Positions 1 through 9,251 of a stretch of 64,000 nt of DNA are shown here, piece after piece. A program made the translations under genes and the position numbers. Below the pieces are notes generated by a model. It worked only from the letters and a program-made list of their open reading frames with translations, had not been told where the DNA came from and did not search any database. Every line of letters starts with the position of its first letter. Positions within the stretch are counted from its first letter, which is position 1. The DNA is taken from positions 1 through 64,000 of the forward strand of contig MU001710.1 of NCBI GenBank assembly GCA_010093515.1, in the 5' to 3' direction. This DNA is from Lineolata rhizophorae. Its lineage: Eukaryota; Ascomycota; Dothideomycetes; Lineolatales; Lineolataceae.

Positions 1-2519
1 GAAATCTACGACAAGGAACTTCTCGCCATCGTCCGCGCCTTCGAAGAATGGCGCCCGGAACTCATGGGATCCGCCGACCCGGTTCAGGTACTAACAGACC
101 ATAAGAACCTAGAATACTTCATGTCTACCAAGAACCTGAACAGGCGTCAAGCTCGCTGGGCCGAATTTCTATCCCAATTTAACTTCAAACTGGCTTACCG
201 ACCCGGCAAGAAAGGCCTTAAACCGGACCTGTTGACAAGGCGCTCGCAAGACTTGCCCCAAGGAGCTAACGATGCACGCCTGCTACACCAGCACCAAACC
301 ATCCTCAAACCGCATAATCTGGCACCCGGTATGCACCACGCGGCCCAGCTGGCAACAATCTTGCTCAGCCCTAGCGAACTGGACGAAGAAGATGACGATT
401 CTTCTGTTTTTTCCCCCGATTCTAACGAGGATGCCCCTCAACCTCAGACCCCCCCTACCGCTGAGCCTGACAACGGACCCCCCCAGGAACCGGAACTTCC
501 ACCCCGACCTGATTCTCCTGCGAACGCCGAGCCCGACAATACCATTCCCACCACGAACGGTCCAGATTTCGGCCAGAATGCTACACCGGCAGCACCGAAC
601 CCGGTTACCCCTGAATCCGCCATGGACGACCTCCACGACCAGATTCGCGCGGCCTACGCCGAAAACCCCACGATGCGAGAGCTACTCGAAGCGGTACGGG
701 ACCCAGACATACGCGTGATACCCGCTCGTATCCGCCTGGAAGGCTATAGCAACGTCGCTCTACATGAGTTGTCCGAACAGGAAGATCTCCTTTTCTACCG
801 CGAATTCCAACTCGTAATACCGAGCAACGGCCCACTTGCCGACCAGCTCAAGCTCCGCTTGATCCGGATGCATCACGACACGCCAATCGGCGGCCACGCT
901 GGCCGAACGACAACTTTCCAACTCCTGGCCAGGTCCTACTACTGGCCAAACTTTAGCAGGGACGTCCGCTCTTTCGTAAACGCATGCGATACATGCAAGC
1001 GTATTACCACCTCTCGGACGAAGAAACAAGGCCTGTTGAACCCGCTACCGATCCCTGACCGCCCCTGGACAGACGTCGCCTGTGATTTCATCGTCAACGT
1101 TCCCGAATGCCGCCGTCACAACGTCGTCTACCGGCATATTGCTGTCGTCATCTGCCGCTTGACCAAGGAACGGATTCTCTTCCCCCTAGCTACCCAATCA
1201 CCCGAAGAATTCGCCCACGCCTTCCTTCACTATGTCTTCCCCTACAAGGGCATGCCGGCTACCTGACTCTCCGATAGAGACTCCCGCTTTACCAGCACGA
1301 TGTGGAAGGAACTCCAACGGCTTACTGGCGTAACACCGAAAATGAGCGCCGCCTACCATCCGGAAACAGATGGACAATCCGAAGCCGCCAACGCTTTGAC
1401 GGAACAGTTCATCCGCGGATTCTGCAACTATTTGCAGAACGATTGGATCAATCTCCTCCCGGACTGCCAGTTCTTCTCCAACAACCACGTGAACGGAGTC
1501 CACGGGCTTCTCCCCATTCGAAGCCGCTTTAGGCTACCCGCCGCGAACCAGGCTGGAACCGCCAACGATGCAACCTCAAGAACCCGCGACGCGTACCAAA
1601 GCCGCTCAGGCACGATTGGCTCAACAGCTGCAGAACCGCCGGGCTTCGACTTGGGAATTCCTCAAATCACAACTCGCATGGGTACAGAACCGGCATTCCG
1701 AATAGGCCAACAAGCTCCGCCAAGCTCCCCCAAGGATCTCCGTCGGCGATAAAGTATGGCTAGATACACGCAACCTTCGCCACGAACGGCCCCACAAGTT
1801 CGATTTCAAACGGGCCGGCCCGTTTACGGTGAAAACGGTAATCGCCAATGGCAAAGCTTTCGAGCTGGACTTTCCCCCGGACATCAAAGCCCACGACGTC
1901 TTCAGCCCCTTTTACCTCACCCTAGACAACTCCACACCGCTTCCAGGCCAAGAACAGACACCTCCGCCCCCCCTTCCCCCTATCAACGACGACGAACCTG
2001 ACGACAACAGCTGGCTTGTAGAAAGCATCACGGACGTTACCCGTACCGGCGGGAAACTACGCTACGAAGTCAAATGGAAGGGCTTTGAAGAACCTACCTG
2101 GGAACCGCTGGAAAACCTCGACAATTGCCAACACGCACTCGCCGATTTCTACCACCGCAACCCGCGAGCTACGAAACCACGTGGATGGAAACCACCGGCG
2201 GATTGGACCTTTCAGCCTCCAGACCCAAGCTCTCAGGAGTTCGCTGCCTAGGGGGGGGGTCGTGTCACGGGCCCCTATTCACCAATCTACATTCACCTAG
2301 AACTTTCCAGTTGTTACTCTAAGTGTTACCGCAAGTAACGTGATCTATGCGTGTTACTGCTGCTGGGAACTTTCCTAGCCCATGTATATAAGGCCCGTCC
2401 GGCCCACTATTCTTCCTTTCCTTCTCTTTTCTTTTTCTTCTTTGTGTAAGCTCTTGTCTCTTAGCTCGAATTCAAGGTTTTCCTACGTGGAATTTCAGCT
2501 TGTCTTCCAAACCGTGACA
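1..2519 (+). mobile_element. Ty3/gypsy LTR retrotransposon (chromovirus), 3' part with 3' LTR
   Basis: The window opens inside the pol region. Parts in order: the end of reverse transcriptase/RNase H (about 1-250, with the LTDHKNLEYF and YRPGKKG motifs); a proline/acid-rich linker (about 380-620); the integrase H2C2 zinc finger (about 860-1010, HH...CDTC); the integrase core (about 1060-1500, with AAYHPETDGQSE); and a C-terminal chromodomain (about 2010-2180, with YEVKWKGF and PTWEPLENL). A G-run at 2251-2259 fits the polypurine tract, and the LTR follows. The chromodomain marks it as a chromovirus. Such elements are thought to be steered toward heterochromatin by this domain. The coding region is not one open frame; it looks broken, with about two or three breaks. 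It keeps normal GC and long readable stretches, so it looks fairly young and little touched by RIP. The 5' half lies outside the window, so LTR divergence and target duplication cannot be judged. Confidence 0.93.
2263..2519 (+). repeat. 3' long terminal repeat
   Basis: About 257 bp, starting TGTCACGG and ending CCGTGACA. These are perfect 8-bp inverted ends of the TG..CA type, placed just after the G-run polypurine tract. Inside are a TATA-like box (TATATAAGG, about 2385-2393) and a pyrimidine-rich stretch downstream (about 2410-2455), as expected of an LTR promoter and U3/R/U5 layout. The sequence directly after 2519 changes character. The partner LTR is upstream of the window. Confidence 0.88.
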
Positions 2520-8307: not shown

Positions 8308-9251
8308 TCAGAGCAATTGCAAGAAGATTGCAAGCGCGCCTCCCATGAATAACGAGGCCACGAGCGAGTGTGATGTGCTCCGCGTCAACGAAGCAGATGA
8401 TGTTGAATTGAAGTCATTTTCGTCGCGGCGAATACAGCCCGTGATGTTAATGAGCTCTGAAGGGCATGAAACGCGTTTGAAATCCACCCTAACAAAGGTC
8501 GCCATTAGCATCGACTCTGGCAGCAGCAGCGAAAGCCAGAGAGAACATACCTAGGGTTTTCCGCATTTTCGTACCAGTCAAAACGCCACATGCAACCGCC
8601 TATCATCGGCTCGGGCAAATTCTGACAGTCATCGCGAGTTCTCACCCCCTGGTTTTCCACTCCAAACGTCGATTCCGGCACGCCATACTGATCCGAGCAA
8701 GCTCCGGCGAAACTTGTATTCCCACCGGGAACCTGACAATGTGTGAGTCAAACCCGCACGCAGATGGAGGATGCCACGGCCTAACTCACCGCAATAGTAA
8801 ACTTGTTGTCGTCAATATCGGTGTCGTACGCGCTGTTATGCGCCTGCACTATCATCGTCTTCCCGGCCACCGGTCCTTCTGTGAAATTCAGGTGGTAGCA
8901 GGAGCAACACCAGTGGTCTTCCGTACGACGGTCGATATAGACACCCACAAAGCCATAGGAAAATGTATCGTTCACCGCCCACGGAGACTGGGTAGCGCAA
9001 GAATAGGCGCTGCCGCCGTTGCAACCCGTGCCTGCGGTAAAATCGGTGAGAGGGGCGTCGTCTATGCCGCAGCTCTCAACGGGGTCGCCCATAAACCTTC
9101 CGTGGTCACTCCAAGAACACGAAGGTTTGCAGCAATCCCAATATCGTTCGGTGCGCGCGGATCCAGAAAGGCTGTCGGCGGTCGCCCATCGAGACGCTGC
9201 TAGCACCAGCGCCAGCGATTTTAGGGCATTTCCACGCCCAATTAAGTCCAT
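8308..9251 (-). CDS. GH45 endoglucanase-like secreted protein with C-terminal GPI-type tail
   Basis: Exons 9251-8790, 8732-8551 and 8488-8308 give about 274 aa. A signal peptide (residues 1 to about 25) leads into the GH45 domain: ERYWDCCKPSC (33-43; Asp39 matches the catalytic Asp10 of Humicola Cel45A), AYSCATQSPWAVND, WCCSCY, WRFDWYENAENP and CPSELINITGC. The dense conserved cysteines fit the six-stranded barrel. The usual HFD motif carrying the second catalytic Asp (Asp121) reads KFT here, with Thr152 in its place, so normal hydrolysis is doubtful. After the domain come a short Ser/Thr-rich linker and a hydrophobic C-terminus (LVASLFMGGALAIFLQLL), typical of GPI attachment rather than the cellulose-binding module found in many relatives. 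A TATA-like box lies about 170 bp upstream. It probably sits at the cell surface, as a cell-wall protein, expansin-like loosener or glucan binder; which of these is inference. Confidence 0.88.

What the first reader, a model, noticed from the sequence alone, without database searches (positions are those of the whole stretch)
8308..9251. GH45-like protein with the catalytic acid Asp replaced by Thr and a GPI-type tail
The sequence keeps the GH45 signature and nucleophile-side Asp39 (ERYWDCC), but the HFD motif with the second catalytic Asp (Asp121 in Humicola Cel45A) reads KFT (Thr152). The C-terminus is a Ser/Thr linker plus hydrophobic tail, with no cellulose-binding module. Two independent departures, chemistry and cell-surface anchoring, suggest a non-hydrolytic wall protein, perhaps expansin-like, derived from an endoglucanase.
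Basis: partly seen in the sequence, partly recalled or inferred. Interest (0 to 1): 0.72.

Follow-up and report, generated by a model that had tools for sequence, protein, structure and literature searches.

The report
Surface-anchored cellulase relative lacking catalytic acid
A fungus carries an intact gene for a cellulase-like protein that has lost the amino acid needed to cut cellulose and has a tail that probably anchors it to the cell surface, so it may have been repurposed from cutting to binding wall sugars.

Summary
On the minus strand (9251-8308) lies an intact three-exon gene for a 274-aa GH45 subfamily-A protein (Pfam E 8e-54; 47-48% identity to three solved GH45s). The general-acid Asp (Asp121 of Humicola Cel45A) aligns without a gap to Thr152. 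The base Asp (Asp39), the assisting Asp (Asp145) and 14 cysteines are kept. Of 168 splice joins tried at intron 1, none puts FD there. The tail fits a GPI signal; no CBM was found.
The change is rare: 79 of 80 fetched bacterial GH45s keep the Asp. It is not unique. A paralogue here (contig C7) has Asn and is followed by three CBM1 modules; some myxobacterial relatives have Ser or Ala; GH45s lacking a catalytic Asp and without detected activity are known from beetles (2019).
"Expansin-like" is not supported. Expansins, loosenins and swollenins keep the Asp lost here and lack the Asp kept here.
Best reading: a GPI-anchored GH45 pseudoenzyme that binds beta-glucan without cutting it. Binding, anchoring, expression and inactivity are untested. 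A relocated acid, a decoy or sequestering role, and slow decay remain open.
Novelty: new variant of a known kind.

The parts
8790..9251 (-). exon 1: signal-like N-terminus, RYWDCC signature, lid loop and K-F-T (residues 1-154)
8733..8789 (-). intron 1 (57 nt, GTGAGT...CAG), directly after FTIA
   Evidence: no open alternative join restores FD
8551..8732 (-). exon 2: VPGGNTS ... GCMWRFDW
8489..8550 (-). intron 2 (62 nt, GTATGT...TAG)
8308..8488 (-). exon 3: end of the GH45 domain, short Ser/Thr stretch, GPI-type tail, stop TGA
9177..9251 (-). signal-peptide-like N-terminus (about residues 1-25)
   Evidence: read from the sequence by eye; no predictor was run
9135..9137 (-). Asp39 (GAT): general base, Asp10 of Humicola Cel45A, kept
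8817..8819 (-). Asp145 (GAT): assisting Asp114 of Humicola, kept, in a lid loop with two extra residues (AYDTDIDD)
8796..8798 (-). Thr152 (ACT) at the general-acid position (Asp121 of Humicola)
8311..8406 (-). Ser/Thr stretch with candidate omega sites (Ser243, Ser245, Ser246) and hydrophobic tail (residues 257-274)

Best explanation
A GPI-anchored GH45 pseudoenzyme. The protein is secreted (N-terminal signal, inferred). It keeps the disulphide-bonded GH45 barrel (inferred from identity and cysteines). Its tail is a GPI signal, so it sits on the plasma membrane or in the wall (inferred). In the cleft the base and several floor residues remain, but the proton donor is gone, so glycosidic bonds are not cleaved (inferred from published proteins). 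It would bind beta-glucan chains, from a plant wall or the fungus's own wall, and hold or sense them at the surface (inferred, untested). The +1 side is remodelled (Tyr147 to Asn; PGGGVG to PGGNTS), so its ligand may differ from that of the parent cellulase.
For: Intact ORF and splice sites. Its 14 Cys are all shared with five reference rows. Thr at a site that is Asp in 79 of 80 bacterial rows (80 of 155 relatives were returned). Equivalents of Arg7, Tyr8, Trp9, Asp10, Trp18, Ala74 and Asp114 kept. 25 of 80 columns invariant among nine acid-bearing relatives are changed, including the +1 Tyr (subsite role from PMC5811441, passages). The acid is essential in PcCel45A, where D114A lost all activity. 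A GH45 relic on C23 shows what decay looks like in this genome: no match to the N-terminal half, frame broken, yet HFD kept. A paralogue with Asn at the site carries three CBM1 modules, 3 of the 5 CBM1 matches found in the genome, which fits binding without cutting. Tail passes a GPI rule.
Against: No expression, localisation, activity or binding data. Loss of the +1 Tyr and of the GGVG loop could also mean that sugar binding is gone. The GPI rule is home-made, not a trained predictor. No fungal orthologue was available, so selection could not be measured. The long branch (1.13 and 1.09 changes per column) also fits relaxed selection. The beetle protein without the acid (DVI4) is also changed at Asp114, and other beetle GH45s with both catalytic Asp were inactive too, so the acid alone does not explain inactivity there.
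Confidence: 0.5

Rival explanations
1. Still a hydrolase: another carboxylate supplies the proton, for example Asp145 or Asp147/Asp148 of the acidic lid loop, on a different substrate.
For: The lid loop is unusually acidic (DTDIDD) with a 2-residue insertion. Asp10 and Asp114 equivalents are kept. GH45 subfamily C shows the family can change its catalytic apparatus (there the base). Some GH45s have Glu at this site (beetle xyloglucanases SOR3-5; L099, L100, L102; L101).
Against: Asp at Humicola position 117 looked linked to acid loss, but acid-less L095 has Gln and L108 Ser there, and the link ranked second of 1585 column-residue pairs, so it does not stand out. No moved acid in GH45 was met in the passages read. 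Beetle DVI4, lacking the acid, had no detected activity.
Confidence: 0.13
2. Decoy or sequestering protein at a host interface: it binds immunogenic oligosaccharides or a host cellulase inhibitor without cutting.
For: Precedent in other families: the inactive GH18 chitinase MpChi sequesters chitin fragments (PMC9224169, passage); the same review's reference list names a paralogous decoy in Phytophthora sojae (title only). GH45 proteins are listed among fungal elicitors (PMC9569958, passages).
Against: Host and lifestyle of this fungus are unknown. A membrane or wall anchor is less suited to a free decoy. The flanking reading frames scanned (20 in two calls, 38 and 39) point to no host-interaction cluster.
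Confidence: 0.12
3. A gene under relaxed selection that is on its way to a pseudogene.
For: Longest end branch in one tree (1.09) and second longest in the other (1.13 after L057 1.28); 25 of 80 otherwise invariant columns changed; one GH45 copy in this genome is already a relic.
Against: Open frame, consensus splice sites, 14 shared Cys and a coherent tail. RYWDCC and WRFDW are intact. GC3 0.60. No RIP-like signature: TpA/ApT 0.60 against 0.76 for the window, and ACT cannot come from an Asp codon by C-to-T/G-to-A changes alone.
Confidence: 0.15
4. Expansin-like wall-loosening protein.
For: Shared double-psi barrel family and presumed lack of hydrolysis. One bacterial expansin (Stigmatella aurantiaca) is described with Leu at the Asp82 position.
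Against: Expansins, loosenins and swollenins keep the Asp lost here and lack the Asp kept here; BsEXLX1 and cerato-platanin need theirs. Only PF02015 was found, so no expansin D2 domain. Its closest solved relatives are subfamily A, which is less like expansins than B and C.
Confidence: 0.06

Closest known systems
GH45 subfamily A endoglucanases (Thielavia terrestris TtCel45A 5gly, Humicola EGV 2eng, Melanocarpus Cel45A 1oa7/1oa9)
   Same: 47-48% identity to the three rows aligned (5glx, 6mvi, 1oa7), shared cysteines, RYWDCC with base Asp, WRFDW, assisting Asp
   Different: General-acid Asp is Thr; +1 Tyr is Asn; PGGGVG is PGGNTS; two-residue lid insertion; GPI-type tail, no CBM1
Beetle GH45 proteins with a catalytic Asp replaced (DVI4 acid to Val, LDE9 base to Asn; PMC6509783, passages)
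   Same: Catalytic Asp lost in a GH45-family protein; no detected activity
   Different: Animal proteins; other replacements, with further changes at Asp114 (DVI4) or Tyr8 (LDE9); the term GPI does not occur in the paper's main text
Expansins, loosenins, swollenins; cerato-platanin
   Same: Related barrel, described as non-hydrolytic
   Different: They keep and (where tested) need the acid Asp; expansins, loosenins and swollenins lack the base; this protein is the reverse
Pichia pastoris PpCel45A (five N-terminal CBM1, PMC3247070, passages)
   Same: Multi-CBM1 GH45, comparable with the C7 paralogue
   Different: PpCel45A is active; the C7 paralogue has Asn at the acid and CBM1s on the C-terminal side; the window protein has no CBM

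Membership tests
GH45 (Pfam PF02015), by descent | profile score above curated cut-off | tested here: met
   183.2 bits against cut-off 27
GH45 subfamily A, by descent | shared cysteines and RYWDCC / WRFDW motifs of the solved subfamily-A rows | tested here: met
   14 of 14 Cys shared with five reference rows; motifs invariant
Active GH45 endoglucanase | general-base Asp (Asp10) | tested here: met
   Asp39
Active GH45 endoglucanase | general-acid Asp or Glu (Asp121) | tested here: not met
   Thr152
Active GH45 endoglucanase | hydrolysis of beta-1,4-glucan | not testable with these tools
   needs purified protein
Expansin / loosenin / swollenin | conserved HFD-type Asp (Asp82 of BsEXLX1) | tested here: not met
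   Thr152; role from passages
Expansin / loosenin / swollenin | absence of the GH45 base Asp | tested here: not met
   Asp39 present; feature
Expansin / swollenin | D2 (CBM63) domain | tested here: not met
   only PF02015 found
GPI-anchored protein | C-terminal omega-type residues, spacer, uncharged hydrophobic tail | tested here: met
   home-made rule; 74 of 20,000 shuffles also pass
GPI-anchored protein | N-terminal signal peptide | tested here: inconclusive
   read by eye; no predictor was run
GPI-anchored protein | actual anchor attachment | not testable with these tools
   needs PI-PLC release or mass spectrometry

The most novel reading that the evidence does not exclude
Acid-less, base-keeping GH45 proteins are a recurrent functional class, the mirror image of expansins: the acid has been lost several times while the base and much of the cleft are kept, giving surface-anchored (this gene) or CBM1-armed (C7 paralogue) beta-glucan-binding proteins in the same fungus.
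Probability: 0.27. Interest if true: 0.65.

Novelty: new variant of a known kind. Interest (0 to 1): 0.45.

Why it matters
If the protein binds without cutting, it shows a second route from cellulase to non-hydrolytic wall protein, opposite to the expansin route, and adds an acid-less, surface-anchored architecture to fungal GH45. It would also warn that counting GH45 genes overstates cellulase capacity: of the three intact GH45 genes found here, one (C21) keeps both catalytic Asp residues (the search's counts are lower bounds).

Tried and rejected
(1) Alternative splicing restoring HFD: 168 joins tried, 20 open, none with FD. (2) Relocated acid at Humicola position 117: all three acid-less rows of the first set had Asp there, but the pair ranked second of 1585, and acid-less L095 and L108 broke it; dropped. 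(3) RIP as the cause: indices unremarkable and the codon change is of the wrong kind. (4) Relatives in viral contigs: 39 stretches matched a pattern, none encodes a relative. (5) Other non-hydrolytic barrel families in this genome: DPBB_1 gave no match in the own genome, though it rang in 7 of 14 control genomes; cerato-platanin gave no match, but nothing rang in the controls either, so absence is not shown. (6) Naming the fungus from rRNA: the SSU search failed on the machine and 5.8S gave no match; species unknown. (7) Deciding whether the window gene and the C7 paralogue share one loss: unresolved. The free tree joins them with support 56/68, two long branches meeting; C7 with C21 is also not rejected (p-AU 0.535). 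They share 13 changed columns of 25 each among 80 (hypergeometric P 0.008) and 4 identical changes; but C7's first intron lies at the same place as C21's (read by eye), where this gene has none. (9) The notebook entry holds provisional exon-1 and intron-1 coordinates; one search replaces them.

Full report
WHAT IS THERE. The window is G000:C41:1-64000 of a 30.97-Mb genome in 48 contigs; the intron-bearing genes and Pfam matches in the window (a fungal Zn2Cys6 domain, Prp31, HAT-repeat splicing factor) show a fungus, species unknown. On the minus strand, 9251-8308, three exons join into an 825-nt CDS for 274 residues. Pfam finds GH45 only, residues 33-233, E 8e-54. The best solved relatives are GH45 enzymes (5glx E 8e-68); identity to the three used is 47-48%.

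THE ACTIVE SITE. The alignment has no gap between the assisting Asp (Asp145, Humicola Asp114) and the acid position, where Thr152 stands for Asp121. Asp39 is the general base Asp10. Kept are the Arg7, Tyr8, Trp9, Trp18 and Ala74 equivalents; lost are Asp121 and the +1-subsite Tyr147, now Asn. Roles are from passages of PMC5811441 and PMC6509783; the number Trp18 is recalled, and Arg7, Trp9 and Tyr147 are my conversion from the TtCel45A numbers. The 14 cysteines are all shared with five reference rows. Of 80 columns invariant among nine acid-bearing relatives, 25 are changed here, 25 in the C7 paralogue, 3 in L011 and 1 in L095. Of 168 joins tried at intron 1, 20 stay open and none has FD.

HOW RARE. 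A scan of bacterial and archaeal genomes found 155 relatives; 80 were returned and all 80 were aligned. Asp stands at position 121 in 79 and Ser in one (L011, Myxococcus qinghaiensis). Candidates were chosen on RYWDCCK or C[QYM]WRFDW, so conservation of the base is partly built in, whereas position 121 is in neither pattern. A second search, by protein, in 145 genomes of the order of L011's genome found matches in 16. Searches gave 18 loci. Thirteen were aligned; three of these repeat L011-L013. L101 and L104, missed by my first script, were read at this stretch; L105-L107 are partial or weak matches without it. The 12 new ones have Asp in 6, Glu in 4 and Ala in 2 (L095, L108). On a 25-row tree (without L101, L104-L107) the five acid-less proteins need four changes by parsimony, at least three forced by well-supported branches. 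Acid loss is therefore recurrent in this GH45 clade, while the base Asp stands in all 22 rows.

PARALOGUES. Six-frame search finds three intact GH45 genes and one relic. C21: canonical HFD, no CBM. C7: QFN (Asp121 to Asn), Asp114 to Asn, Trp18 to Ala, followed by three CBM1 modules, with introns whose splicing in one frame I read by eye; these are 3 of the 5 CBM1 matches in the genome (a lower bound). C23: matches to profile positions 103-211 only, in two frames, with HFD kept. Codons at the acid are GAT in C21, AAT in C7 and ACT here, a possible stepwise path Asp-Asn-Thr. Whether this gene and C7 share one loss is unresolved. The genome also has GH7 matches at two places and 22 AA9 stretches, so it is not poor in cellulose-active families as a whole.

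THE TAIL. After the domain come about 14 residues rich in Ser/Thr and an uncharged hydrophobic stretch (257-274, mean hydropathy 2.18), with Ser245/Ser246 as likely omega sites (spacers 9 and 8). The rule was passed by 74 of 20,000 shuffles of the protein and not by C21. This is a sequence-level case for a GPI anchor, not proof.

MECHANISM. Shown here: intact gene, Thr at the acid, base kept, remodelled +1 side, GPI-type tail. Inferred: no hydrolysis, because PcCel45A D114A (subfamily C) lost all activity (PMC5829257, passages) and beetle DVI4 (acid to Val) had none detected (PMC6509783, passages). Caution: DVI4 is also changed at Asp114, and several beetle GH45s with both catalytic Asp were inactive as well. 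Inferred and untested: binding of a beta-glucan at the cell surface. The expansin proposal fails on its key residue: expansins, loosenins and swollenins keep the acid and lack the base (PMC10909974, passages); BsEXLX1 D82N and cerato-platanin D77A are inactive (PMC5072189, PMC5444802, passages; D77A also destabilised its protein). Against this, one bacterial expansin is described with Leu there.

NOVELTY. Ten searches of the open-access library were made. Those joining GH45 with GPI terms listed 6 of 6, 15 of 328 (four of six terms) and 10 of 15 papers; no title or printed start of an abstract is about a GPI-anchored GH45. PMC3032700 and PMC9569958, checked in passages, mention the two separately. 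Beetle GH45s without a catalytic Asp are published, and beetle GH28 pseudoenzymes have measured effects (PMC6549527, abstract). Most subscription papers are not in that library, and no fungal protein database could be searched, so this may be a known orthologous group elsewhere. Hence: new variant of a known kind.

Noticed in passing
G000:C7, about 1102082-1103906 (L009 about 1083-2907): Second acid-less GH45 (QFN) in the same genome, also lacking the Asp114 and Trp18 equivalents, followed by three CBM1 modules that are 3 of 5 CBM1 matches in the genome.
   Followed up: partly
G000:C23:538883-539195 (L010 about 1584-1896): Relic GH45: fragments keeping HFD, without a match to the N-terminal half and in two frames.
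   Followed up: partly
   Followed up: partly
L099, L100, L102 (and L101): GH45s with Glu for the catalytic acid; L099, L100 and L102 form a supported clade and read RAWDCC in place of RYWDCC. Beetle xyloglucanases SOR3-5 also have Glu at the acid (PMC6509783, passages).
   Followed up: no
window 1-1263 (+): The contig begins inside a retrotransposon reading frame (RT RNase H and integrase H2C2 domains).
   Followed up: no
window 8829-8831 (-), residue 141: A lid-loop Gly kept in 79 of 80 bacterial rows is changed in acid-less window protein (Ala), C7 (Ala), L011 (Thr) and L108 (Ala), but not in acid-less L095, and it is also Ala in acid-bearing L094 and L103.
   Followed up: partly
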